The position numbers and the translations under genes were made by a program. The notes under the pieces are model-generated. The model had not been told where the DNA came from. It saw only the letters and a list, made by a program, of their open reading frames with translations, and searched no databases. This document shows, piece after piece, positions 1,743 to 64,000 of a stretch of 64,000 bases of DNA; the first letter of the stretch is position 1; each line of letters begins with the position of its first letter. Origin of the DNA: Tachypleus tridentatus (lineage: Eukaryota > Arthropoda > Merostomata > Xiphosura > Limulidae); NCBI RefSeq assembly GCF_004210375.1, contig NC_134834.1, forward strand, positions 156,445,290-156,509,289. Reading direction: 5' to 3'.

Positions 1743-2024
1743 TGGGGCCTGGCATGGCCTAGCGCGTTAAAGCGTGCGCTTCGTAATCTGAGGGCCGCGG
1801 GTTCGCGTCCGAGTCACGCCAAACATGCTCGCCCTCCCAGCCGTGAGGGCGTTATAATGTGACGGTCAATCCCACTTTTCGTTGGTAAAAGAGTAGCCCA
1901 AGAGTTGGCGGTGGGTGGTGATGACTAGCTGCCTTCCCTCTAGTCTTACACTGCTAAATTAGGGACAGCTATCACAGATAGCCCTCGAGTAGCTTTGTGC
2001 GAAATTCCAAAACAAACAAACAAA
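1743..2024 (+). mobile_element. tRNA-derived SINE, copy 2, with target-site duplication
   Basis: The head ggcctggcatggcctagcgc and B-box-like gggttcgcgtccgag are followed by the common body (gttggcggtgggtggtgatg) and an aaacaaac tail. It is flanked by the exact 11-bp duplication ccttttatttg at 1732-1742 and 2025-2035. Confidence 0.92.
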
Positions 2025-5321: not shown

Positions 5322-5450
5322 CTCTCCAGTCAACTTTACTAAGTAACAATAATAAGAACACATACTTTAAATAAAAACTTAAGTACTACTATCATATGAG
5401 GCAAGTTGTGCACTATCAGCTCACTGGTGAATTTAAACAGTCAGTTGTTA

Positions 5451-5600
5451 AATTTATATGCAAAAACGGCTCGTTTGGGCTGAGAAAACACTTTACATAG
5501 AAGAGCGAACAACGTTTCGACCTTCTTCGGTCATCGTCAGGTTCGCTCTTCTATGTAAAGTGTTTTCTCAGCCCAAACGAGCCGTTTTTGCATATAAATT
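5451..5600. repeat. 60-bp perfect inverted repeat around a hammerhead-like core
   Basis: Arms 5451-5510 and 5541-5600 are exact complements (left starts aatttatatgcaaaaacggc; right ends catataaatt). The 30-nt loop is 5511-5540. On the - strand the loop holds CTGACGA, a short stem-loop and GAAACGTT. Confidence 0.95.
5500..5545 (-). ncRNA. Hammerhead-ribozyme-like core (candidate)
   Basis: The - strand has CTGACGA (5540-5534), a T, then GACC/GGTC closing a GAAGAA loop, then GAAA (5518-5515), then CGTT. ACGT could pair with a second copy as stem III, and the flanking 60-bp arms form stem I. One extra T between the first box and stem II departs from consensus. Confidence 0.4.
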
Positions 5601-5772
5601 TCTCAACAAGTGGGTTTCTCGTCATCACTGAGTCAGTTGTTAAGTAAAATAAGTTTAATTTTACAGATAGTGAAATTAAATATAATAAACATAATGTGTC
5701 AGTTTTATAGTGGCCAAGATTCATTATAGAAGGTATCTGTGATTTGTTAGCGATAAATTTAAACAATAAATG

Positions 5773-6049
5773 GTTTTGGTTTTTTGGAATTTCGCACAAA
5801 GCTACTCGAGGACTATCTGTGCTAGCCGTCCCTAATTTTGCAGTGTAAGACTAGAGGGAAGGCAGCTAGTCATCACCACCCACCGCCAACTCTTGGGCTA
5901 CTCTTTTACCAACGAAAAGTGGGATTGACCGTCACTTTATAACGCCCCCACGGCTGGGAGGGCGAGCATGTTTGGCGCGACTCGGCCGCGAAACCGCGAC
6001 CCTCAGATTACGAAGCGCACGCCTTAACGCGCTAGGCCATGCCAGGCCC
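5773..6049 (-). mobile_element. tRNA-derived SINE, copy 4, with target-site duplication
   Basis: A full-length antisense copy flanked by the exact duplication aacaataaatg (5762-5772 and 6050-6060). A related sequence without the SINE lies at 8660-8720. Confidence 0.92.
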
Positions 6050-7998: not shown

Positions 7999-8280
7999 TC
8001 TGGCACGGCATGGCCAAGCACGTTAAGGCGTGCGACTCGTAATCTGAGGGTCGCGGGTTCGCATCCGCGTCGCGCCAAACATGCTCGCCCTCCCAGCCGT
8101 GGGGGCGTTATAATGTGACGGTCAATCCTACTATTCGTTGGTAAAAGAGTAGCCCGAGAGTTGGCGGTGGGTGGTGATGACTAGCTGCCTTCCCTCTAGT
8201 CTTACACTGCTAAATTAGGGACGGCTAGCACAGATAGCCCTCGAGTAGCTTTGTGCAAAATTCTAAAACAAAAAACAACA
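7999..8280 (+). mobile_element. tRNA-derived SINE, copy 5, with target-site duplication
   Basis: A full-length + copy with tRNA-like A-box region tggccaagcacgttaaggcg and B-box gggttcgcatccgcg. It is flanked by aggctctgcct at 7988-7998 and 8281-8291. Confidence 0.92.
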
Positions 8281-11603: not shown

Positions 11604-11958
11604 GGCCCGGCATAGCCAGGTGGTTAAAGCACTCAACTCGTAATGGTCGCAGGTTCGAATCCCTGTTACACCAAATATGCTTGCCTTTTCAGCCGTAGGG
11701 GCGTTATAATGTACGGCCAACCCTACTATTCGTTGGTAAAGGAGTAGCTCAAGATTTGGCGGTGGGTGGTGATGACTAGCTGCCTTCCCTCTAGTCTTAC
11801 ACTGCTATATTAGTGACGGCTAGCGCAGATAGCCCTTGAGTAGCTTTGCGCGAAAATTCAAAACAAACCAAATCTCTCTAGTCTTACATTGCTAAGTTAG
11901 GGACGGCTAGCACAGATAGCCCTCGTGTAGCTTTGTGCGAAATTCAAAACAAACAAAC
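11604..11958 (+). mobile_element. tRNA-derived SINE, copy 7, with doubled tail
   Basis: The head ggcccggcatagccaggtgg and body run to aattcaaaacaaacc at 11870. Then the last 80 bp of the SINE (ctctagtcttacattgctaa to aaacaaacaaac) are repeated once at 11876-11958. Confidence 0.88.
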
Positions 11959-13870: not shown

Positions 13871-13912
13871 ACTGGAAGTCTGATGAAGGTCTGTCGCCTG
13901 AAACGTTCAGTG
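13871..13912 (+). ncRNA. Hammerhead-ribozyme-like core (second candidate)
   Basis: CTGATGA (13880-13886), AGG/CCT stem II with loop TCTGTCG, GAAA (13900-13903), then CGTT. All consensus core bases are present. Stem I could form from TACTG (13870-13874) and CAGTG (13908-13912), leaving a bulge of about five bases. Confidence 0.4.
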
Positions 13913-13924
13913 ATAATTTCAACG

Positions 13925-14167
13925 TTAGACTCGTAATCCGAGGGTCGCGGGTTCGAATCCCCGTCGCACCAAACATGCTCGCCCTTTCAGCCGTGGGGGC
14001 GTTATAATGTGACGGTCAATCCCACTATTCGTTGGTAAAAGAGTAGTCCAAGAGTTGACGGTGAGTGGTGATGACTAGCTGCCGTCCCTCTCGTCTTACA
14101 CTGCAAAATTAGGGACGGCTAGCGCAGATAGCCCTCGTGTAGGTTTGCGCGAAATTAAAAAACAAAA
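13925..14167 (+). mobile_element. tRNA-derived SINE, copy 9, 5' truncated
   Basis: It begins at ttagactcgtaatccgagg, so the A-box half of the tRNA-like head is missing. The B-box gggttcgaatccccg and the body are intact. Its truncated start abuts the hammerhead-like motif at 13871-13910. Confidence 0.9.
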
Positions 14168-17420: not shown

Positions 17421-17768
17421 TTTCAAACTCTTGTTTACCATTTTGTTTATGTTCTTGGTCGTAACACTAGTAAGATGATGCAGTTTGTCTCTTGTATAAG
17501 GAGCACACACCCACTTCTTTTGAGTACTCTGTTACTTTCAACCTTAAACTCAGGAGTTTAATTAGGCTTAATATGATGGGATAAAATCCATAATTATTTA
17601 GCTGCTTCTGATATATTCTCATGTTATAACATTGAAACCTACATATTTACTTTGATATATTGTAATTATGTAATCCTTTGATATTGAAAGCATGAATAAT
17701 TTAATTTTTATTTTTTTATTTTCAGAATTTCCATTTAAGTGAAACCTTGTGGGACAACAAATGAAAAG

Positions 17769-18974
17769 ATGGGTCATAGAAATAAAAAACATCACATTAG
17801 ATTTCATGACAATGATTTTAATACTGAAAAACAGAATAATGTAATAAATAATGAGCATCCTAGTCAACCTAGAAGTATTAATTATCAAAACAAAGATAAC
17901 AATAATTGTAAGTTGTTACATGCAGCAGAAGTAGACTTGATTTCTCCATCTGGTAGGAAGAAACATAAGAAAAACAAAAATAAACAGATGGATAAAGAGA
18001 AGAGAAGTTACTATAAGGCACAGCATAGAAGAGAAACAAGTGAAAGAAATTCAGATATTAGTGGTGAATCATTTGCAACAGCATCATTTTTTGGAAATGG
18101 ACATAACATTAATTTGAAAGATGCCAACACAGAATTTGTTCCAAACAAAAAGAAGCACAGAAAAAAACATAAAAGAAGTAAGAAAAGTGAACCAAGTGAA
18201 ATCTTGCAGAACAGTTCTCGGTCATCTTTTACAGACAGTCAAAGAACTGTGAGCATTATTGATGCGTGTGAACAAAATGTGTCTCAGTGTAATGAACCGA
18301 CAGCAAGGCATGAGAATGTTAATGTTATGGGACAAAATAATTTTAATTTGAATAAGGGGAAATATGAATGTAATGAGGAATTACCATGGAAGAAACAAAA
18401 AAGAAAATATTTGAATGGTGGATATGAAACTCCTGAAAAGACTAAATCTCCCAATTCAAATACAAATAACACAAGAACTGTATCAAAAAAAATGGTCACT
18501 ATAGATTGTGAACATAATAAGCCTATGTATGGTGAATTAGAGTCTTTTGTACCAGCCAGTAATAATTATGAGGATTCTTTAAATGTGGACTGTGATTTAA
18601 ATGGTCATAATAGTTCAGGATTGAAATTTAGAGAGAAAATTATTGAGAAACCAAGAAAACAGTTTTGTGAAGGTAAACAAATTAGTAGCAGTTTATCCAC
18701 AAAAGAGAAAAAAAAGTTTGCTTTTGATGGAGAGTCTCAGAATAATAGAAAAACTAGCGTAAAGAGTGCATTTACTACAAGATCCACATTTTCATCAGAT
18801 TCTAATGTATTAGAAGAATCGGATGAAATTGATGAAACCCGTAGCTTTAATGGTCAGAATGGAAGAGAAAAGTTTTCAGAAGATAATGACCACCAAAACT
18901 CTAAGGTGAATGGTAACCAACACTTTACTTTAGATCAGTCAGATACTGATGACGACCAAGCAGTTATGGAAGAG
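17769..18974 (+). CDS. TTF1: TTF1 coding exon 1 (N-terminal basic region)
   Basis: 402 codons, phase 0 end. The physical exon probably begins at 17726 after the ttttcag acceptor. The translation has no recognised fold. It holds lysine-rich patches ([10 protein letters not shown] near residue 65; [13 protein letters not shown] near 128) suited to nuclear or nucleolar targeting, then serine- and acid-rich sequence ending [14 protein letters not shown]. The donor is GAAGAG|GTAAAT. The reading frame continues past the donor to a stop at 19076, so intron retention would give a 436-residue protein from this ATG with no Myb repeats. That read-through tail ([15 protein letters not shown]) looks intronic. 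Confidence 0.9.
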
Positions 18975-21900
18975 GTAAATGATGAATTTGACACATTAAT
19001 GTTACTGAAGAACAACCTTTCAATTTGTGTATATATACATGTTTATAACTTAAAACACAAGCTGAAACAAAAATAAATTAAATGCTGCACTAATTAAAAA
19101 GATTCCAGGATACAAACAGTTAATGTGGGATTATAAAATGTACCCTAGGTATTGGAGGTTATGTAAGAAGTAGGACCCACATTGCAGTGGGGATACTGTG
19201 TATGAGTCTTAACCTCCATTTGCCAGTCTTGCATAAGGAATAAAGTAGTAGCAGTATAGAAATTGAAAAGCTTTATATATATACACACTATACAGTGTTT
19301 TAGTTGAAAAAATTACCATATACATAATTTTTTTCAGTTTATGCTAAAAATATCATAGATGTGTTATATAAAAACTGTTAGTCAATTTACTTAATTTTTT
19401 GACATATTTCAAGGGTTATTTTTTTGTGTGTGTGACAAATTTTTCCAATAGAATAAAAGTAATTGTTGCTTTTACAAAGTTAATTGAAAATAACACTGCA
19501 TAACATTATTGCCAGGAATAAGAAAGACTTATTGTTGGAGACTTTTCAAATTGCATATTCTTATTACCTTCATTTGTTTTTTTCCTAAATCTTGAGAAAA
19601 AAATTTTTGGGAGTAGGGGCATATCTTTTTTCTCTGTATATATTTCTCATCTCACCCACTGATTAATCTAGTTTCTGAACTAAATTTATGTAGAGGGAGG
19701 GATTGTAATATCTTTATTGGTTATTGAAGGTAGCAGGCTAGTAAACATATAGAAATTCTCATATTATCATAATATTTTCCAATAAGTAAGAAATGATTGA
19801 ATGACAACAATGTAAACATTACTTTCTTTAGGAACTTCATTTAGATGCCACAGAAGATCCCCTGAATTTCTCTCCACCAGCTCTTCACAAAGCTGGAACT
19901 GTATGCAACTTAACACCAAGTGAAAAGGAACAGCTACTTTGTAAAGGTTAGTAGACAGTTATGTTTAATCATTTGGATGAAAAAAGGTTTGTTATTGATT
20001 AAATAAAAAAACAAAAAATGTTATGGATGTATCTCTTTACCATCATGTTATAATGTAAACATTTAGTTAATATATATTCCTAGTTTCTTAAAATTTGAGA
20101 TAAAAATGATATATTTTTGTTTTTTGTAACTGTATCACTTATCATATAAGTAATCTCAAATAGATAAATGTAAATACTTTGTTACATAAGTAGGGCTATG
20201 TTACTTGTTTATATGATTTATATAATGTTTAACCACTTCACATAAAGGTTTGTATGTTTTTATTGTTTATACCAAGGTGTGAAAATTCGTACAGGAAAGT
20301 GGACTAAAAGAGAAAATGATATTTTGAAACAAAATTGGGAAGAACTCTGTGAGGTATGAAGTAGGTAGTTGGTATCGCTAGGTTTATTGTATTAAATGTA
20401 TTTCAATTTGGGGATTTAGCTGGAAAGAAGGTGAAAAAATGAGTTCTCAGTGAAATTGTTAGTTTTACATTACATTTTTTAGTTCCTGATGTTTTGATGT
20501 TATTTAGTAAGCACAGAAAATGTTGACTATGTAATCACTGGTATACTATTTTTATGAATTTGCTAAAAACATAAGTATGATACAAGAAGCATGCAAAAGT
20601 ATGTGGTTGGTATGTTAATGTGTCATTTTGTATTATTAGTCCATCATAAAGGTGATAGGTACATTGGGTAAAAATATGTAAAACCCACGAAATATCCAAA
20701 ACAATTTTTGTTAGTGTGAATTTGCCAATGTAATTGGAAGGGCCTCATTCAAAACTTATTGTGAGATTGTAACCATAAATTGATGCAACTTATAATGAAA
20801 GTATAATTTGTATTCTAAAAACAGATGGTATGGATATTAAAACTTTAATTAGAATACAGAACAAAGTTTTGAAAGTTTTAACCTTCTTCGAACATCTTCA
20901 GGTTAATAGAGGGTTTATAACTGACCATTGCCGTATATGTTTCGGGGATGAGATTGTAGGGGGCATTGCGATTAGATGTTAGGTTACACTGCATAATTTT
21001 TTTAAAAAGTTTTTGCTAATTGTGACAGGTACCTAGTCACAAAATGTAGTTTTGGTTTTGCTTCATCACGTAGGAACTCTGAGAAATAGACAGTTAACTG
21101 TTTACTGGCAATAATGTATTTAATTGCATTTGTTTCCAATATGCTATTAAGTTCAACATAATTAAGTGTTTTGCTCCTAATTTTCATTTGTATTCAGTGT
21201 TTGATGCATCACATTGCAGTGTCCAACAGTAGTCGGCAAGCATTGATGGATTCCAGTTGCCCTGATATTGTTTTTCTATTGTAGCAATGTCCTGGTAAAA
21301 CCTTTCACCATCTTCGTCACTGACAGCACCGAGATTTGTGGGGAAGAAGTCCATGTGTGAGTGGAGAAAATTAATCTTGAGTGACATGTTGCACTTCATT
21401 ATTTTGTATTCTTTAAGAAGTTTGTCTACCAGCTGAATGTAATGTGGGGCTCTGTAATTGCCAAGAAAATTGTCAACAACGTCTTTGAAGGCTTTCCAGG
21501 CAATCTTTTCTGGCCTAACTAACAGATCTTCGAACTGCTTGTCACTCATAACATGTCTGATCTGAGGGCCAACAAAAATGCCCTTTTTGATCTTGGCCTC
21601 AGTTATTCTTGAGAACATTTGTCTTAAATAATGAAAACCTTCATCTTCTTTGTACATTGCTTTCAAGAAATTCTTTATAAGTCTCAATTTTATGTGAAGA
21701 GGAGGCAAAAAAAATCTTTGCCGGGTGAACAAGTGGTTCATGTGCCACATTTTTCTGTCCTGGAACTAATATTTTACAGACTGGCCAGCTCTGTCTAGAA
21801 TAATGTGACTTTTTGGCACGGCTGTCCCATTCACAGATGAAACAACAGTACTTTGCCGAGCTACAGTCCCGGTAACAGAGCAACGACTTTCAGATCTCCA

Positions 21901-32300: not shown

Positions 32301-35300
32301 CCTGATAATGTTTCTAATGATAAATACAATTAATGAGAATATATCTTGGGTTCACTGTTTTCAACACCTTTTCATTTTGGTCTGTTGCACTTTTCACCTC
32401 ATCAGGATATCTCACTTTCCACTCCTTTTTTTACAGCTGGTGTGGGGTATATTAAGTTTTCCCTATCATCCGTGAAGCCTCTCCATCTGTACTGGGTGAA
32501 ATTCCATCTTCTGAATTTGACATAAGGTTCATTCGCAGCAATTTTTAGACAAATTACAGTTGAGTATTGGCATGTCCCCCTCACCTGTTGAACCATCACA
32601 TTTTAATGTATCAACTTTTCAAATCTTTTTATATTTTCAGCAACTGGATCCTGTTTGAGGTTCAAACCCTGAGTCTAATGTTACTTTTAATAATTCATGA
32701 TGTTAGAAAAATGCATAGGTTCAAGTCTTGAAAGAAATTAAATAAAAACCCTGTAACCCGAGCAAGCTGGTAACCTGAGAAATACTCCCAGTTTGTCCCT
32801 GAAAAGAAAGTCCACCTTTTGAAAGCACTAGGTTTATAAGGTTAGTTTTAATAAGGCATTATTCTCAAGGGTTTGTCTTTCCTGCTTCTCTATTTTAAGA
32901 CTTGTATTCCTTCCATTTATTGTTGAAGGCTTTTCGTTGCTTCCCAGATCTTTTTTCCAGTGAACACAACTCCTTTATTCCATCCATTGTGGCTTAATTA
33001 TTGGCCTCTGCTCTTTCACTAAATACTTGGCTGGTGTGGTTTTTTCACTTGTTGGGGAGAGATGCATTACTTGCAGGTGTGTATCTTTCCCATTCAATGT
33101 CTTCAGGGTCTGCATCAGGCCCCTTTCTTTTGCAATACTACATATGGTAGTCTTACAGCTGCTTTAGAATCAAGGGTTTATGTAGCTAGGTTGCATTTGT
33201 CTTTGTTTTATCTGGGCATATGATTGTCTCAACCTCCATTTTCTCCCAAGAAGAGCTCATTCTTGTTTACTGACTTCCTCCTTACTTGCCCATGTCCGTA
33301 CCTACTTTGTAACAATATTCAAAAATATATCAAAATTAAATTTAAAAAAAAGAATAACTTAAAACTTGACACTTCAGGTGTGATATTTTATTTTGATCCA
33401 AGGAAGGATCTTGTTTTGTGTGTTTTTGATTTTAGTTTCAGGTAATTTTGGCAAATAAAAATGTAGCTTTCTTTAAAGAAATGACCCCTTGGTGTGGATT
33501 CCTGTACGTGGTGAGGGGACCTCCCAGGGAAGGTTCTGTTCTATCTGGTTACCTTCTCTGGGATCTAAACATCCACCCACATGTTTGCCGTGCGTGGCGA
33601 CCCGTGAAGGGGAGGAGAGGATCCTGGTGGTTGAGGGGTCCAACCCTAACACACCACTTTGGCCTTTAATTCCTGTAGACGGGCAGCCTTTGGGTAGCCC
33701 CCCTTGGGTCAATCGGCTGGTCCACTTGGGCTAGAATCAATCAAGTACCAGTGTTGGAAGTTCTCAACTGGTGTTGTGGACATTGTGCCTGATGCTGGTG
33801 TTTGGGTATAGTGCTCACGAAACCCTGGCGTTGCTGCATTGTCCTTGCGTGACTTTGTAGTGCGTCCCCTTGTAGGGCTCCATGGTAGGTGGGGTCAGTG
33901 GGTACCCAAATTTTTTCTTTTTTCCTATGGATCCTCTAAAAAATTTAAATAAAATTGTAAAAAAACAGTCAATGGGTAAGCGACCACGTCTTGAATACTT
34001 AGAACAGCAATCTTCAACATCAGTAACACACGTACCTCATTTTTTTATATTACATTCTATTTCGGAAAAACCTTTAGGGCAAATGTCCCCTTTTTATTCA
34101 AAAGGGACTAGAGGGACTTGCTGGCTCTCCAAAGTCAGTAAAGAAACTTCAATCTGGTGACATATTGGTTGAAACATCCACATCCCAACACAGTGAACTC
34201 CTCTTGAATTCAAAGGCAATTGGGGATATACCTATTGAGGTTACACCCCATGCTACCTTGAATTCTTCACGAGGAGTTATTGTTGAAAGGGATTTGAAGA
34301 ACGCTCCCGAGTCAGAGATTCTCGCTGGTCTCTCCACTCAAGGAGTTTCTGCAGTGAGGCATCTCCACTCGCAAAGATGGAGTTACACTGCCAACAAATA
34401 CCCTCGTTTTAACATTTACTTCACCACGTGCACCTGCCACCATCAAGGCAGGTTATCTCATTTGCAGGGTTCAGCCATACATACTAAACCCTCTTTGATG
34501 TTTCCAATGTCAGAGATTCGGCCACTCAAAGACATCTTGTCGTGGTTCCCTGATATGTGCTCGTTGTGGAGGCAAGGACCACGATCCCTATGACTGTGAC
34601 ATGAACCCACATTGCGTAAACTGCAATGGTTCTCACCCTTCTTACTTTCATTCTTGCCCAAAATGGTTGGAGGAAAAAGAGGTGCAGCGTTTAAAAACGA
34701 CACATAACATTAGTTATCCTGAGGCTCGGAAATTGCTGTCCACAACTCCATCTCGGACATATGCTGCTGCACTTCATTCCACAACTACAGTGGGAGTGCA
34801 GATAGATCTCTCTGTGCCTCCAAGAGAATCGTTTTCAAAACAAATGTAAAGCCTTTTGATCTCCGTGGTTAAAAAGGTTGATGAATCGACTTCCATCTCT
34901 GTTCCTCCCATACCTTCCAACAAACCTCAAGATCCACGTCCTTCAGTTTCAGATACAGGCATTTCTTCTGATACATCTTTTTCTCCCACCACAAGAGGCA
35001 AAACAATCATTTGTTTGCATCCTCAGTTACTGGAATCCCCTTCCAATAACAAAGACCTGCCCAACTGACCCAGGGCAGGATCCATGGAGGTTGATAGACC
35101 TCCTCCGACTAAGAACATTAAGGAAAAAAGATGTGGTCGTAAACAGAAGGGTTCTCCAGCTAATTCGCCTACTCGTCATTAAAAATGGCCACCTTGATAC
35201 AATGGAACTGTCGAGGTTTACGTTCTAATCTGGATGATATCAAAACACTGATTGCTTCCTACCATCCTGTTTGTCTTTCTTTACAAGAAACATTTCTCAA

Positions 35301-38300
35301 AACTGCTGATACTGTCTCCATTCGGCAGTTTTCTCTGTATAGAAATGACAGGTTGTGTGATGGTCGAGTACATGGAGGGGTGGCACTGTTGGTTGATCAA
35401 TACGTGCCCACCCTGTCTTTGTCACTCAACACACCCTTGGAGGCTGTAGCCATCCGTGTTTCCTTGGGTCATATCATCACTGTTTGTTCTCTGTACCTGT
35501 CCCCTGGAGAGACATATGATCAATCAGATCTTGATGCTCTCGTTGAACAATTGCCATCTCCATTTCTAATCCTAGGGGATTTTAATGGACATCATCTCCT
35601 CTGGGGAAGTGCTATTATTGATGGGAGGGGCCGATCTGTAGAGTGGATGCTCTCTGATCACAATCTTTCTCTTTTCAATACTGGTTCTTCCACTTACTTT
35701 CATGCACCTAGTCAGTCCTTTACTGCTATTGATCTCTCAGTTTGCTCCCCTTCATTATTCTCCCATTTTTCATGGAGGGTTAACAGTAATCCACTAGGCA
35801 GTGATCATTTTTTGATCCTTTTGAGAGAGACTGGCCGTGGTCAATGCCACCCTACCCGCGTGCCCCGGTGGAAGCTGGATCAGGCAGACTGGTCCACTTT
35901 CACTGCTCTCGCAGAACTTGATCCTGCCATCGTAAATCAGCCATCAATAGACGACTGTGTAGCAGCGGTAACTGACTGCATTACACATGCAGCTGCTCAG
36001 TGTATTCCTAAAACCTCGACACGTTTTCCACGATATCCTCGTCCGTGGTGGAATCCCGCTTGCCACTAAGCACGGAAGGCTCAAAAGCGGGCCTGGGATA
36101 CTTTTAGTAGATATCCCACACTTTCAAACCGGGTTGCTTTCCAACGGGCCCGTGCACATGCTATGTGGGTAAGACGTCAAAGCCAGAAGGAATCTTGGAT
36201 TCAGTTCACAACCAGCATATCTTCTAACACCAGTTCCAAGATCATATGGGACAGGATTCGAAAGGTTAATGGGCACTACAATTCTATTCCCCTCTCAATC
36301 TTACTCTCTGATGGTCAGGAGGTGACTGATGTTCGGAACATCGCTAACACTATGTGAAAGCTTTTGCCGGGTATCTAGCACTTCTGCTTGTTCCTCCACC
36401 TTCCTGGCCATCAAGACTCGGGCAGAGCGATCACCTCTTTCCTTTCGAACTGATTGTTTCTTTGACTATAATTGTCCCTTTACCCTGGTGGAACTAAAAA
36501 TGGCCCTTCATCGGTCTGCCAGTATGTCTGTTGGACCTGATGATATTCATTATGACATGCTGCACCATCTATCTCCTGCTTCTCTTGATGTCCTTCTGAT
36601 TGTTTTCAACTGAATCTGGCAGGAGAATGTTTTTCCTGATGCCTGGTGCCAGGCTATTATTTTACCTTTCTCTAAGCCAGGGAAAGATCCCAAGATTCCT
36701 TCAAACTACTGTCCAATTGCTTTGACGAGCTGTCTCTGTAAGACATTAGAAAGGATGGTTAATGCTTGTCTTGTTTGGTGCCTTGAATCAAACAACCTCC
36801 TCACACCCACCCAGTGTGGGTTCCGTCGACAGCACTCCACCACAGACCACCTAATTCGTCTTGAAACATCTATCAGAGAAGCCTTTCTCTACCGCCAACA
36901 TCTTGTATCAATATTCTTTGACATAAGAGAAGGCTTACGACACAACATGGAGGTACGGCGTTTTGCGAGACCTCCATACATATGGTTTACGTGGCCATCT
37001 ACCCATATTTATTAAAAAATTTTTAATGGACAGGAGATTCCAAGTTCGTGTGGGTTCGACACTTTCCCGTTCTTTTGTACAGGAACTTGGAGTCCTTCAA
37101 GGCTGTGTATTGAGTGTTACACTCTTCAGTATAAAGATAAATGCCATCACTGAACAATTCCCTCTCACTGTTGCGAATGGGCTGTATGTCGACGACTTTC
37201 TCATCTCATGTCAGTCGTCAAACATGAGATATATTGAGCGGCAACTACAAACCGCCCTCAATTGTGTAATGGAAGTGGACTCTGGCGAACGTCTTTAATT
37301 TCTCTCTCTCCAAAACTGTATGCATGCACTTTTGCCATCGACAGGGTATTCACCCTGATCCTGAACTTCATATCGGTGAAGTTTTGCTGCCAGTGGTCCC
37401 GGAGACCAAGTTCTTGGGGCTTATCTTTGATCGTAAACTGACCTTTATACCACACTTAAAGCAGCTTCGGGTCAAATGCACAAGAGCACTGAACATCCTC
37501 TGTGTTCTCTCTTCTACCAGTTGGGGGGCAGATTGCTGTTCAATGTTAAAGGTATATTATGCTCTTATTAGATTGAAACTCGATTATGGATCAATGGTCT
37601 ATGGCTCTGCCAGACCCCGCCTTAAAGATGCTGGACCCCATTCATCACCAAGGACTTCGACTCTGCACTGGGGCTTTCCGTACCTCTCCAGTTCAAAGTA
37701 TATACATTGAATCTCATGAACCTTCTCTACACCTTTGCCGTTTGCAACTATCTTTGCAATATACTTCGATATTTCATTCCTTACCAAAGCATCCCACCTG
37801 GAAATGTGTTTTCCTTCCTCGGTGGGCAGTACTTTTTCAGAACAGACGGTCTGTCATTGCTCCGTTTGGCCTTCGCATCCGGGCGCAAATGGATGAATTG
37901 GGTCTGTCCTTGGATAACATTGCAGATTCCACAGGTTGGCCTATCCCACCATGGCTTATTACAGCCCCAAATGTGACCTTTCTTTCAGTCACCTAAAAAA
38001 GGCAGATACTCCAGATTGGAAGTACCGTCTTTTATTCAATGAATATCTTTCAAACAATCATTCAGTTCCCATTTATACAGATGGTTCCAAATCAGGTAAT
38101 TCAGTGGGCTCTGCTATGGTTTGCTATGGGTCAGTAGTTACACATAGAATCCCTTCTACAGCTTCTGTGTTCACTGCTGAACTGTATGCCATATCTTTTG
38201 CCCTGGATCATATTGCAGCTGAGCAGTACTCCAACTGCACTATTTATACTGATATGCTTAGTTCTATACTTGCCTTGGAATTGCTACACGTTAGCTCACA

Positions 38301-41300
38301 TCCTATTCTCGCTGATATTCGAAACCGACTGGTCCATTTCTCATTAGCAGCTACTTCAATCCAGTTTTTCTGGATACCAGGCCATGTTGGTATTCACAGG
38401 AACGAGCTTTCAGACATGGCAGCTAAATATGTCTGCTTCAGCACCATCACTCCTATGCCTATTCCGTACATGAACTATGGTGTTATCTTCAAGGCTCAGC
38501 TCCGTGCTAGCTGGCAGTCCACTTGGAGTGAGCAACGTGACAACAAACGTTTTCAAATCAAACCCAAAATTGGACTTTGGCCATCTAGCTTCCGTAAAGT
38601 TCGGAAGGAGGAAGTTGTTCTCACTAGGCTACGCATTGGTCACAGTTTTTTAACTCATCATTTTCTTTTATCTGGAACTGATGCACCAATGTGTAGTTTG
38701 TGTAACACTCAAATCACTATCAGCCACATTTTACTTTCTTGCCATCGTTACAATTCTCAACGACGGCAATATTTTAAACATATTTTTTCCCAGGGTCAGT
38801 CTGTAACATTGGACAGAGTTATTGGTGATGGTGACTCTGTCCACCTTGATAATGTTTTTAATTTTTTAATGGCCATTAATCTTTTTAATCTCATTTAAGT
38901 GTTGCATATTTATTCATTACACCTTTTTAATTGTGGTTCCTTTTTTACAGTTTTAATCTCTCTTCAATTTGACATTGGACAATGGCCAGAACATTAAATA
39001 ACTCGACACCAGGACTGGAAAGGCCAACTTCAGGTGACTAACGCTACTGTTTGAACTATCCATTTGAACTACTTGTTAGTCATTCTGGTGAGTTGTTATT
39101 ATACTTTTGCTGCATATCATTTCACACTTTTACTACTTAACTTTTTAGTACTGGCCATATTGACTCATAACCCGGAACCAGGACTGGAAAGACCAACTTC
39201 AGGTGACTGATGGTGGTTTTTATACTTACCTGTTAGTCTTCCTGGTGGGTTATGATCATTACCATTCTGCTACAGGTAGTTCTTTACAACTTTGTTGACT
39301 GGATGTCAACATTGGTTTTACACCATTTTCTGTTTTAATTGCTGTTTTGTTTTTATCTTCAATTACTTTTACAAATTTTACTCCATTTACTTGACTTTTA
39401 TCTTTTTACTGGACATTTGGCTACTCATTATTACGATTTTGCTATGTATCTTTTAAAACTTCTATTCTTTTACATTTTGATAATAGTTGCTATGACACAT
39501 AACCCAGAACCAGGACTGGAAAGGCCAACTTCAGGTGACTGACGATGGTTCTTGAACTTACCTGTTAGTCTTCCTGGCAGGTTATGATCATTACCTTTTG
39601 ACTAGAGTAAATACCTTACAACTTCTTATACTCTGCCTTCTATCTTAACATTGTAGACTAGGTGTCAACATTGGTTTTATACTTTTTTGTTTTACCTTCA
39701 TTTCCATTTATGTCTATTACTACATTTATTTTTTTATTATTTTTTACATTTTTACCGAATGTCTGGCACAGATAGCCTCGCTGCTTTGTGCCATAAAACA
39801 CTAAATCAATCAATCAATCAATTGAAGAAATGTTGTATCCAATAAAATTATTTTAGTACTGATAGCATATAAAGATGATTTAATTGCATGTTCAAGTAAA
39901 CTTATTTATCCATAGTAATATATTAAGGTTAAAAACTGTCAAATTTGTGTCTGTGTTGAGTTTAAAATACTTCACATATAAAAAAAATAAGTTTAACAAT
40001 TAGTTGTCTTTTCTTGTCATAGCTAAAGGACTGAATGATCGTTCTCTACACAGTGTATACTTAAGAGCTAGGAAACTATTTTCATCAGGTTTTCGTCAGG
40101 GAAGGTAGTCTTTTTTTTTTGTCTTATTTTTAAGCTGAAAGTACAATAGATCTAAATTTGTTTCTTTTGAAATTGGTAAACAGTCTTTGTATTAATCTCT
40201 TTTTGGTAGTTTGTTCACAATAAACCATGTTCTCCAAAGTGACTTCAAAAAGAAAGTGTTTGATATTTTACAGTAATGAATTTTCTTAACTTTACTACTT
40301 CTTTTATGAGATGCATATCCAAGTTTCATAAACAACTTTTTTTTTAATCTTATAACCTGCAGATGACCTTAGATTTATTGTTTTTAGCAATGGGCAAACT
40401 TACTACACATTATTTCATTCTGTGGTTAAGGCCTTATCATTAAACCTAAATGGGGTAATGTTATTATCTCTTGTACATGGAGATTAAATTTAGTATTTTG
40501 GCATTGTTATTGTGCAAGTTACTCTTGTTTTCTTTTAGGATGAAAAATCGTGAATTTTCAAAAGTGTTACAACTATACCAGATACATGGTAGAAAGTGGT
40601 CCATGATTGGAAAGAAACTAAACAGACGACCAGACATTGTGAAGGAAATATTTAGATATCGGACAACAAAAGAAGGTAGGAACGTGAACTTCATTGTAAA
40701 GCTAAAACAATAACATTGTAATTAGCTTACAAAGAAGTTAACCTGGAATAACTTGCATAAATGGACTGATATAAAAAATTAAAATGTGTTAAAATTATAA
40801 GTTCAGATGTTTACTGTTTTAACTTGGACTAACAGTACTCATTTGAGTGCTTTCATAACAGGCTCAATATAATATAGATGAGTTAAGTGCTGATACTGTA
40901 ATGTTTGATGTAGTATGTATATCTTCACAAAATGTTAAAGATTGCAAGTCATTTGTACACAAAAAATCAGATTTTTTAATGAAGTATTTTTACTAAACAT
41001 TGATTTATGAAAATATTAAGTCTGTTTTCTTACTGTTCTGAGTGCAAAGTGATTTCATGTTATGATTAGAAAACTATTTTGCCATCCCAAAAATCTCGGA
41101 TATTATTTGTATAATCTCTAAAACTTCGTAGATACATTTCACATGTTTGTTTTCAGTAAAACTATATTTTGTCTGTTATTTTCTCTACCCTAACTGTGTG
41201 GGGTCTGTTAATTTACAGACCTTGTAACCACCATAAAAAATTAGGAAATAAATATAAATTTTGCTTTTTTCACTCTAGAGTGACTACAGATCTTAACACA

Positions 41301-61270: not shown

Positions 61271-64000
61271 GTTGATTGATTGATTGATTTAGTGTTTTAT
61301 GGCACAAAGCAGCTAGGCTATCTGCGCCAAACGTCCGGTAAAAAGGTAAAAATAAATTAAATGTAGTAAAATACAGAAAAGGAAATGAAGGTAAAACAAA
61401 ACATCATTGAAAAACAGAAAAAGCATAAAACCAATGTTGACACCTAGTTTACAATGGTAAGAGAGAAAGCAGAGTAAAAGTAGTTGTAAAGTACTCACTC
61501 CAGCAAAATGGTAATTATCATAAACCACCAGGAAGACTAACAGGTAAGTTCAAGAACCACCGTCAGTCACCTGAAGTTGGCCTTTCCAGCCCTGGTTCTG
61601 GGTTATGTGTCATAGCAGCCATTATCAAAATGTAAAATAGAAGTTTTAAAAGACACATAGCAAAATCGTAATAATGAGTAGCCAAATGTCCAGTAAAAAG
61701 GTAAAAGTCAAGTAAATGTAGTAAAATTTGTAAAAGTAAACAAAAGTAAAAACAAAACAGCAATTAAAAACAGAATATTGCATAAAACCAATGTTGACAT
61801 CCAATCTATAAAGTAATAAAGAACTTCTGTAGCAGAATGGTAATGATCATAACCTGCCAGGAAGACTAACAAGCAAGTACCAGAACCACCGTCAGTCACC
61901 TGAAGTTGGTCTTTCCAGTCCTGGTTCCAGGTTATGTGTCATTATGGCCAGAACCAAAGGATAAAGTAATAAAAGTTTAAAAAACATGCGGCAAAATTGG
62001 AATAACAACTCGCCAGGACAACTAACGGGTAGTTCAAACAGCAGCGTTAGTCACCTGAAGTTGGCCTTTCCAGTCCTGGTGTCAAGTTATTTAATGTTCT
62101 GGCCATTTTTCAATGTCAAATTGAACTAGAGAGAATGAAACTTTGAAAAGGGAACCACAATTAAAAAGGTGCAATGAATAAATATCCAACACTTAAATGA
62201 GATTAAAAAGATTAATGGCCATTAAAAAACTAAAAACTTTATCAAGGTGGATAGTGTCACCATCACCAAAAACACTGTCCAATGTAACAGATAAACCCTG
62301 GGAAAACATGTTTAAAATATTGCCGTCTTTGAGAATCTTAACAATAGCAAGAAAGTAAAATGTGGGTGAGAGTGATTTGAGTGTTACACAAACAACACAC
62401 TGGTGCATCAGTTCCAGATAAAAGAAAATGATGAGTTAAAAAATTGTGACCAATGTGTAGTCTAGTTAGAACAACTTCCTCCTTCTGAACCTTATGGAAG
62501 CTAGATGGCCAAAGTCCAATATAGGGTTTTATTTGAAAAAGTTTGTTGTTGCATTGCTCACTCCAAGTGGACTGCCAGCTGGCACGGAGCCGAGCCTTGA
62601 ATACAAGACCATAGTCCATATACGGAATAGGCACAGTGGTGATAGTGCTGGAGCAGACAGATTTAGCTACCATGTCTGTAAGCTCGTTCCCGTGAATACC
62701 AACATGGCCTGGCATCCAGAAAAACTGGATAGAAGTAGCAGTTAATGAGAAATGGGCCAGTCGGTTATGAATATCAGCGAGAATAGATGTGAGCCAATGT
62801 GTAGCAATTCCAGGGCCAGTATAGAACTAAGCAAGTCAGTATAAATAGTGCAGTTGGAGTACTGCTCAGCTTCACTATGATCCAGGGTAAGAGATATGGC
62901 ATACAGTTCAGCAGTGAACACAGAAGCTGTAGAGGGGATTTTGCGTGCAACCACCAAACCGCAATAAACCATAGCAGAGCCCACTGAATTACCTGCTTTG
63001 GAACCATCTGTATAAATGGGAATGGAATGATTGTTTGAAAGATGTTCATTAAATAAATGACGGTACTTCCAATCTGGAGTACCTGCCTTTTTCAGATGAC
63101 TGAAAGAAAGGTCACATTTGGGGACTGTAATAAGCCATGGTGGGATGGGCTGACCTGTGGAATCTGCAATGTTATCCAAGGACAGACCCAAGTCATCCAA
63201 TTGCACCTGGATGCGAAGGCCAAACGGAGCAATGGCAGATCGTCTGTTCTCAAAAAGTACGGCCCATTGAGAAAGGAAAACACATCCCCAGGTTGGATGC
63301 TTTGGTAAGGAACAAAGTTTCAAGAATATAGTAAAGATAATTGCAAACGGCGAAGGTTCACGAGATTCAACGTATAAGCTTTGAACTGGAGAGGTGCAGA
63401 AAGCCCCAATGCAGAGCTGAAGTCCTTGGTGATGAATGGGGTCTAGCATCTTTAAGGCTGAGGGTCTGGCAGAGCCATAGACCATTGATCCATAGTCGAG
63501 TTTTGATCAAATAAGAGCACGATATACCTTTAACATAGAACATTGATCCGCTACCCAACTGGTAGTAGAGAGGACATGGAGAATGTTCAGTGCTCTTGTG
63601 CATTTGACCCGTAGCTGTGGTATAAAGGTCAGCTTACAGTCAAAGATAAGCCCCAAGAACTTGGTCTAGGGAACTACTGGCAGCGAAACTTTACCGATAT
63701 GAAGTTCAGGATCAGGGTGAATACCCCGTTGGCGGCAAAAGTGCATGCAAACGGTTTTAGAGAGAGAGAAATTAAAGTCGTTCACCATAGTCCACTTCAG
63801 TACACAATTGAGGGCAGTTTGTAGTTGCCGCTCAATATATCTCATGTTCGATGACTGACATAAGATGTGAAAGTCGTCGACATACAGCCCATTCGCAATA
63901 GTGAGAGGGAATTGTTCAGTGATGGCATTTATCTTTATACTGAAAAGTGACACTCAAAACACAGCCTTGAGGGACTCCAAGTTCCTGTACAAAAGAACGG
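61271..64000 (-). mobile_element. Second copy of the I/Jockey-group LINE (5' part cut by window edge)
   Basis: The tail of TTGA repeats at 61271-61290 marks the 3' end on the - strand. Reading leftwards from 64000 are RT (GLYVDDFHI near 63880), the connection region, RNase H ([12 protein letters not shown] near 63020; PGHVGIHGNELTDM near 62700) and the C-terminus ending MAINLFNLI at about 62193. There are several frame breaks. It is clearly similar to the 33.5-39.8 kb copy throughout, including the 3' UTR modules. It lies upstream of the recognised kinase exons, probably in an intron, in the kinase gene's orientation. Confidence 0.93.
62193..63953 (-). pseudogene. LINE ORF2 remnant of the second copy (RT C-terminus and RNase H)
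   Basis: Open segments 63953-63666, 63485-62742, 62715-62338 and 62408-62193 each match consecutive parts of ORF2 in the first copy. They are separated by a TAG near 63664, a TGA near 63506, a frameshift near 62740 and another near 62340-62400. The RNase H acidic residues are kept (YTDGS, AELYAI, YTD, LTDM). Confidence 0.9.

What the first reader, a model, noticed from the sequence alone, without database searches (positions are those of the whole stretch)
5440..5643. 180-bp insertion made of a 60-bp perfect palindrome around a hammerhead-like core, with 12-bp target duplication
Seen: exact arms 5451-5510/5541-5600, loop with CTGACGA...GGTCGAAACGTT on the - strand, and gtcagttgttaa on both sides. 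Known: Penelope-like elements carry short-stem-III hammerheads near their ends, some acting as dimers. Here ACGT is self-complementary and the arms supply an unusually long stem I. Inference: a minimal, non-coding retro-mobile unit derived from a Penelope-like end and moved in trans.
Basis: partly seen in the sequence, partly recalled or inferred. Interest (0 to 1): 0.8.

Follow-up and report, generated by a model that had tools for sequence, protein, structure and literature searches.

The report
Two-ended Penelope retroelement insertion scar
The 180-base palindrome is a very short copy of a Penelope-like jumping gene that seems to have been copied into both sides of one DNA break and joined in the middle; this genome holds many such scars, and they bear on how this poorly understood class of element inserts itself.

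Summary
A 179-bp insert (5452-5630) lies between 13-bp target duplications. It has 59-bp perfect arms, a hammerhead core on the - strand and a 31-nt tail on one side only. In the host genome (2.17 Gb) the core, arm and tail are the pLTR/ORF start of a Penelope-like element with RT and GIY-YIG domains; the native order (hammerhead-arm-tail) matches 2,723 times. Native stem I is 6 bp, so the long stem I is a by-product. The palindrome is two antisense cDNAs of one sequence joined head to head. In 84 independent head-to-head insertions the left cDNA starts without the tail and the right with it (all were scored by finding a tail). Target duplications are 12-14 bp in 69 of 84, and joins vary. Thirteen fetched insertions share this window's join, with 13 different duplications and both orientations, so the palindrome seems to form anew each time. 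Best explanation: target-primed reverse transcription from both strands, from two RNA sites about 33 nt apart, joined through 4 bp of stem I. Inverted Penelope ends and one-sided tails were already known; the genome-wide regularity makes the mechanism testable. Ribozyme activity was not tested.

The parts
5439..5451 (.). left copy of the 13-bp target-site duplication
   Evidence: exact repeat with 5631-5643; the same layout in 90 of 100 fetched loci with an inverted left piece (TSD >=9), against 4 of 504 swapped-flank controls
5452..5510 (-). left arm: start of the antisense cDNA primed by the left target end; begins at start site 1, without the tail
   Evidence: exact complement of 5541-5599; in 85 of 85 scored rows the left cDNA starts at reference 1550-1579, mode 1567
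5511..5540 (-). Penelope-type hammerhead core C3 to U17 (CUGACGA, U, stem II GACC/GGUC, GAAA, ACGU with no stem III loop); predicted cut between 5511 and 5510
   Evidence: descriptor scan; same layout as the Anolis PAc RNA printed in PMC11167929; numbering recalled from the hammerhead consensus
5511..5534 (-). ATG at 5534 at the place where the Anolis Penelope ORF starts, 24 nt to the predicted cut; this frame has a stop 13 codons on, so it is not coding here
5541..5599 (+). right arm: copy of the same 59 nt that lie downstream of the hammerhead in Penelope sense
   Evidence: native order
5541..5544 (.). join of the two cDNAs: GTTC, 4 nt that fit both pieces (native stem I)
   Evidence: placed by the identical insert L011 (reference ends 1476-1480 and 1510-1514); same join in 13 independent fetched insertions; 17 exact matches genome-wide
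5600..5630 (+). 31-nt tail, present on this side only; ends at start site 2
   Evidence: tail length and one-sidedness as described for Adineta in PMC3846280
5631..5643 (.). right copy of the target-site duplication

Best explanation
The insert is a severely 5'-truncated Penelope-like element (PLE) made by two-ended target-primed reverse transcription. The PLE protein cut both target strands 13 bp apart, leaving 3' overhangs. Each 3' end primed an antisense cDNA on PLE sense RNA near the pLTR/ORF start. The left end started at site 1, which leaves out the tail. The right end started at site 2, about 33 nt further downstream, and so carries the tail. The left cDNA ran through the hammerhead into stem I; the right cDNA stopped at or near the hammerhead cut site. 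The two joined through the 4-bp stem I complement GAAC/GTTC, and repair filled in the rest. The palindrome is two copies of the same 59 nt facing each other. Shown here: the anatomy, the family, native versus inverted order, one-sided tails in the sampled insertions, target duplications and variable joins. Inferred: priming from both strands, identity of the start sites with those seen in vitro for Anolis, and run-off at a cleaved RNA end.
For: Native order hammerhead-arm-tail: 2,723 pattern matches, against 109 with the antisense hammerhead before arm and tail; reversed-pattern controls 0 in both. The same terminal sequence lies on an element with RT (4.3e-12) and GIY-YIG (6.1e-5, C-terminal part only) domains (ORF). 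84 independent head-to-head insertions: right end at reference 1596-1600 and left start at 1550-1579 in each (85 rows, one a duplicate); TSD 12-14 bp in 69 of 84. TSD >=9 in 90 of 100 loci with an inverted left piece, against 4 of 504 swapped-flank pairs. The two cDNA ends are unrelated in position (differences -1002 to +874 nt), which a simple hairpin does not explain. Of 37 C1 insertions, 25 have gap-free joins, 19 of them with >=2 nt overlap, against 17% of random joins. Orientation logic: both end pieces read antisense from their own target end, so neither can be a copy of the other. The Anolis PLE nicks and extends both strands in vitro; its two start sites flank the tail, the commonest 111-118 nt into the ORF (PMC11167929); here the tail ends 114 nt after the ATG in native order.
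Against: In the 63 of 85 rows with both arms typed to subfamily, none mixes subfamilies (39 + 24 + 0), so two random RNAs are not what is seen; one RNA, two RNAs of one source, or subfamilies active at different times must be assumed. Scoring needed a tail on one side, so insertions without any tail cannot appear; L043, without a recognised tail, was dropped, and a pair of tails pointing away from each other (C1:23036679/23036780) was not read. 31 of 80 sampled C1 loci show no inverted left piece in the stretch read, and several of them look one-ended. 12 of 37 C1 joins hold unassigned bases. The PAc paper saw no start-site difference between strands in vitro, and hammerhead mutants did not change insertion there. 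C6:128509334 has the identical 179 bp with a different target duplication, which re-mobilisation would also give.
Confidence: 0.72

Rival explanations
1. Non-autonomous mobile unit: the palindrome itself is transcribed and re-inserted by PLE protein in trans.
For: An identical 179-bp copy lies at C6:128509334 with a different target duplication. The + strand transcript would carry arm and tail at its 3' end. The query had 653 candidates genome-wide, of which 40 were scored.
Against: Joins vary. The window's join occurs in both orientations with 13 distinct duplications and with arms of both subfamilies (for example L011 and C7:193161483). In the scored insertions the left ends stop at start site 1, whereas one-ended copying of a palindromic transcript should give variable 5' ends. 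Only 17 exact matches to this join were found.
Confidence: 0.12
2. Self-priming: a transcript (antisense, as proposed for Adineta Penelope in PMC3846280) folds back at the hammerhead stem and primes its own copying.
For: Palindromes at head-to-head joins were read that way in PMC3846280. Stem I sits exactly at this join. Arms are of one subfamily in 63 of 63 typed rows, and 3 private variants are shared between arms against 0.07 expected (39 others are in one arm only).
Against: The tail is on one side only in the 84 scored insertions, so one side cannot be wholly templated by the other. The two cDNA ends are up to 1002 nt apart in the element, too far for a simple hairpin. Each end sits on its own copy of the target duplication.
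Confidence: 0.12
3. Foldback DNA transposon, MITE or microRNA-type hairpin unrelated to reverse transcription.
For: Perfect inverted arms with target duplications; the best Rfam hits at a relaxed threshold are microRNA hairpin families.
Against: All Rfam hits are below the gathering score. The arms are the Penelope pLTR/ORF start. Duplication length varies (9-18 bp) and the ends are not symmetric.
Confidence: 0.02

Closest known systems
Penelope elements of Adineta vaga with inverted pLTRs (PMC3846280; passages and the Discussion read)
   Same: Head-to-head inverted pLTR ends, palindromes at the join, 8-10-bp target duplications, a 31-bp tail optionally on one of the inverted ends.
   Different: The elements shown there keep much of the ORF; here no ORF is left and the insert is 179 bp. 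That paper preferred self-priming on antisense template; the joins here favour two cDNAs.
PAc, the Poseidon PLE of Anolis carolinensis (PMC11167929; parts 1-3 of 4 read)
   Same: Hammerhead at the pLTR/ORF junction with ACGU and no stem III loop; both target strands nicked and extended; two RT start sites flanking the tail.
   Different: In vitro there was no strand difference in start site; here each scored insertion pairs one start without tail and one with. Joined head-to-head products were not described in the parts read.
Small Penelope hammerheads that cleave as dimers (Lunse, Weinberg, Breaker; paper not held, known only from its title and citing passages)
   Same: Minimal core with a palindromic stem III.
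   Different: Here the core sits between long inverted arms; the hammerhead fold lies 4 kcal/mol above the predicted hairpin fold. Activity untested.
Metazoan retrozymes (PMC7229834; part 1 of 6 read)
   Same: Short non-coding insert with a type I-like hammerhead.
   Different: Retrozymes are tandem repeats of about 170-400 nt with canonical hammerheads; this is a single palindrome with a Penelope core.
LINE-1 twin priming (recalled, not looked up)
   Same: Two target ends prime on element RNA, giving an inversion and a target duplication.
   Different: Here the two cDNAs cover the same RNA stretch and start at two fixed sites, so the product is a palindrome.

Membership tests
Penelope-like element insertion | terminal sequence shared with an element coding RT plus GIY-YIG | tested here: met
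   L070: ORF ending at 1357, before the pLTR, hammerhead, arm and tail; PF00078 4.3e-12. PF01541 6.1e-5, 23.7 bits against cut-off 22.6, seen when the C-terminal part was scanned alone; not listed at E <= 0.01 for the whole 451 aa
Penelope-like element insertion | hammerhead at the pLTR/ORF junction | tested here: met
Penelope-like element insertion | 30-40-nt tail on one end | tested here: met
   31 nt here; one tail in each of 84 scored insertions, scoring needed a tail
Penelope-like element insertion | target-site duplication | tested here: met
   13 bp here; >=9 bp in 90 of 100 loci with an inverted left piece
Active hammerhead ribozyme | Rfam hammerhead score | tested here: not met
   no hammerhead family even at E <= 10; the core lacks a closed stem III
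Active hammerhead ribozyme | self-cleavage after U17 | not testable with these tools
   needs transcription in vitro
Metazoan retrozyme | tandem repeats of about 170-400 nt with canonical type I hammerhead | tested here: not met
   single unit in the window; no Rfam type I hit
Metazoan retrozyme | circular RNA intermediate | not testable with these tools
   needs RNA
Independent palindromic mobile unit | copies share one internal join and spread as a unit | tested here: not met
   joins vary; copies with the shared join have distinct TSDs and both orientations; one identical copy at C6 is compatible with it

The most novel reading that the evidence does not exclude
Penelope-like elements integrate mainly by a coordinated two-ended reaction: each strand of a staggered cut primes on PLE RNA, one strand at site 1 and the other at site 2 about 33 nt away, on one RNA or on the two identical pLTRs of one tandem RNA. 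The hammerhead supplies a run-off end for one of the cDNAs: left cDNA ends cover the cut in 7 of 31 C1 insertions against 2.3 expected (P 0.002, chosen after looking; scan P 0.013), although in the first C1 set alone it is 4 of 21 (P 0.04, scan P 0.23) and right ends are not enriched (1 of 20). This would give the puzzling ribozyme and the inverted pLTRs one common explanation.
Probability: 0.45. Interest if true: 0.72.

Novelty: new member of a known kind. Interest (0 to 1): 0.52.

Why it matters
How Penelope-like elements integrate, and why they carry inverted ends and a hammerhead, is open. This genome holds thousands of copies of these ends, many in short insertions with readable ends, target duplications and joins, so it is a natural record of the reaction. 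The one-tail regularity and the junction positions turn the two-ended model and the role of the ribozyme into directly testable predictions.

Tried and rejected
Rfam at gathering and relaxed thresholds: no hammerhead; hairpin-driven microRNA hits below the gathering score. Viral-contig and genome-contig pattern scans and plasmid and phage searches: no relative; two 19-nt patterns each matched one viral contig, where nothing longer than 22 nt of the insert matches, taken as chance. Single-cDNA snap-back: rejected because the tail is one-sided and the loop orientation would be reversed. 'Hammerhead cut sets the join': a hint only. 'Two random RNAs': not supported (no mixed arms in 63 typed rows), although the subfamilies may have been active at different times. 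A dimer energy calculation was reduced to monomer refolding, because the dimer structure is pseudoknotted for that program. My descriptor does not recognise the Anolis hammerhead, whose contiguous stem I is 3 bp (read); its ATG-to-cut distance is 29 nt by my count on the printed RNA, while the paper's text says 26. A PDB search with the L070 ORF found nothing.

In one search I first took two short matches to lie on one contig; the file held two loci. Rows dropped: the four sets hold 139 loci (57 + 23 + 20 + 39); 54 were dropped (no inverted left piece or no right piece 25, 10, 3, 1; TSD <9 4, 1, 2, 3; duplicate TSD 1, 1, 0, 3), leaving 85; L087 was then dropped as the same event as L086, leaving 84. 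and still contain L087. The tail at C1:1573375 lies inside locus L076 and was not scored on its own.

Full report
OBSERVATION. The arms are exact reverse complements (61 bp when extended). The flanking repeat is 13 bp. The - strand loop is a hammerhead-like core; a strict descriptor finds it nowhere else in the window and in none of 200 shuffles. The layout is: TSD 5439-5451, left arm 5452-5510, core 5511-5540, right arm 5541-5599, tail 5600-5630, TSD 5631-5643. The tail has no counterpart on the left.

THE CORE. Read as a hammerhead (numbering recalled), C3 is 5540 and U17 is 5511 on the - strand. Stem III is ACGU with no loop, so it can only close with a second copy. The Anolis PLE RNA printed in PMC11167929 has the same layout. 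Rfam gives no hammerhead at either threshold. The lone strand prefers another fold of the core by 4 kcal/mol for the six stem lengths tried. Cleavage was not tested.

THE FAMILY. The host genome could be searched after six unanswered tries. The insert has 653 candidates, 40 scored. The order hammerhead-arm-tail matches 2,723 times; the order seen here (antisense hammerhead, arm, tail) 109 times within the pattern's spacing limits. The exact tail alone occurs 4,068 times. Locus L070 shows the native context: an ORF ending at 1357 with an RT domain and, when its C-terminal part is scanned alone, a GIY-YIG domain just above the curated cut-off, then about 120 nt, the hammerhead, arm and tail. Native stem I is GTGAAC/GTTCGC, 6 bp with one G-U pair (read). 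So the 59-bp stem I is not a feature of the native element.

TWO cDNAs. Aligned to L070 (cut after 1509, tail end 1600), the right piece of the head-to-head copies ends at about 1600 and the left, inverted piece starts at about 1567. Four sets were examined: 57 loci on C1 (exact tail or native order, 0-16.6 Mb), 23 native-order loci further along C1, 20 with antisense order, and 39 similar to the palindrome. They gave 27, 11, 15 and 32 head-to-head insertions with distinct TSDs of >=9 bp; one pair is a duplicated event, leaving 84. In these the left start lies at 1550-1579 and the right end at 1596-1600. TSDs are 13 bp in 38, 14 in 22 and 12 in 9 of the 84. Of 100 loci with an inverted left piece, 90 have TSD >=9, against 4 of 504 swapped-flank controls. 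Of the 80 C1 loci, 38 rows (37 events) are head-to-head with TSD; 31 show no inverted left piece in the stretch read; 7 have an inverted left piece without an accepted TSD or as a duplicate; 4 run off the stretch. Of the 31, six match the whole 1.6-kb reference, so their left end lies further off (L098, L100, L101, L105, L124, L126), and a few look like ordinary one-ended insertions (L072/L074, L088, L092, L125). Head-to-head is thus common but not the only product.

COUNTS OF ENDS. The arm end occurs 5,242 times exactly: 2,868 followed by the start of the tail and 2,374 not. The second number includes mutated tails.

THE JOIN. Joins vary widely; cDNA ends differ by -1002 to +874 nt. Of 37 C1 insertions, 12 have unassigned bases at the join; of the other 25, 19 overlap by 2 nt or more, against 17% of random joins (BLAST extension may inflate this). 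The window's join, GTTC/GAAC of stem I next to the cut, occurs in 13 fetched insertions with 13 different TSDs, 9 in the window's orientation and 4 mirrored, and matches 17 times exactly in the genome. The 39-locus set was chosen for similarity to the window, so its frequency there says nothing. In the two C1 sets, left ends cover the cut position more often than expected (7 of 31, null 2.3, P 0.002; scan P 0.013); in the first set alone 4 of 21 (P 0.04; scan P 0.23); right ends do not (1 of 20, null 1.4). This was looked at after seeing the data and is only a hint.

WHICH TEMPLATE. In the 63 of 85 rows where both arms can be typed, they are the same subfamily (39 and 24, 0 mixed). In 70 rows, 3 private variants are shared between arms against 0.07 expected, 39 are in one arm only, and 42 pairs are identical over the compared stretch. 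One RNA, the two pLTRs of one RNA, or RNAs of one source would fit; subfamilies active at different times would also explain the lack of mixing.

MECHANISM. Both end pieces are antisense when read from their own target end. Neither can be a copy of the other, and a hairpin cannot put the tail on one side only. Two-ended target-primed reverse transcription fits. The Anolis enzyme extends both strands in vitro from two sites flanking the tail, the commonest 111-118 nt into the ORF (PMC11167929). Here the tail ends 114 nt after the ATG in native order. What is new against that paper is the pairing of one start without tail and one with, under the caveat that scoring needed a tail. Against the ribozyme's part stands that paper's finding that hammerhead mutants insert normally in vitro.

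KNOWN OR NEW. Inverted pLTRs, palindromic joins and the optional one-sided 31-bp tail were described in Adineta (PMC3846280), with self-priming on antisense RNA as the favoured reading. I saw no paper describing ORF-less two-ended Penelope insertions or joins mapped to the hammerhead in the listings of searches; four key papers (Lunse 2017, Cervera 2014, Craig 2021, Schostak 2008) are not held, so this is no proof of absence. The locus is a new member of a known kind; its value lies in the genome-wide record of the reaction.

Noticed in passing
window 20872-20904 (-): A second, decayed Penelope-type hammerhead (CTGAAGATG...GAAGAAGG...AAAAC) with different arms: probably a second PLE family.
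   Followed up: partly
window 13880-13912 (+): CTGATGAAGGTCTGTCGCCTGAAACGTT, another hammerhead-like motif without a contiguous stem I, just before a tRNA-like repeat.
   Followed up: no
window 1859-1954 and 5840-5935: A 96-bp perfect inverted repeat pair within copies of a SINE-looking repeat with a tRNA-like part; further copies match near 8157-8210 and 11756-11805, and by eye at 13930-14130.
   Followed up: no
window 35185-38898 (+) and 62338-63485 (-): Two copies of a LINE; the first has endonuclease, RT and RNase H domains, the second was recognised only by sequence similarity.
   Followed up: partly
G000:C1:9557693-9561290: Ten same-strand copies of the Penelope arm, four neighbouring pairs 166 bp apart: a possible satellite made from the element.
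   Followed up: no
G000:C1:23036679-23036808: Two exact tails pointing away from each other about 100 bp apart: a possible insertion with two tails, an exception to the one-tail regularity; not read.
   Followed up: no
G000:C6:128509334-128509512 (L011): The identical 179-bp insert with a different target duplication.
   Followed up: partly
window 17739-19076 (+): A 445-aa lysine- and asparagine-rich ORF without Pfam match at E <= 0.01.
   Followed up: no
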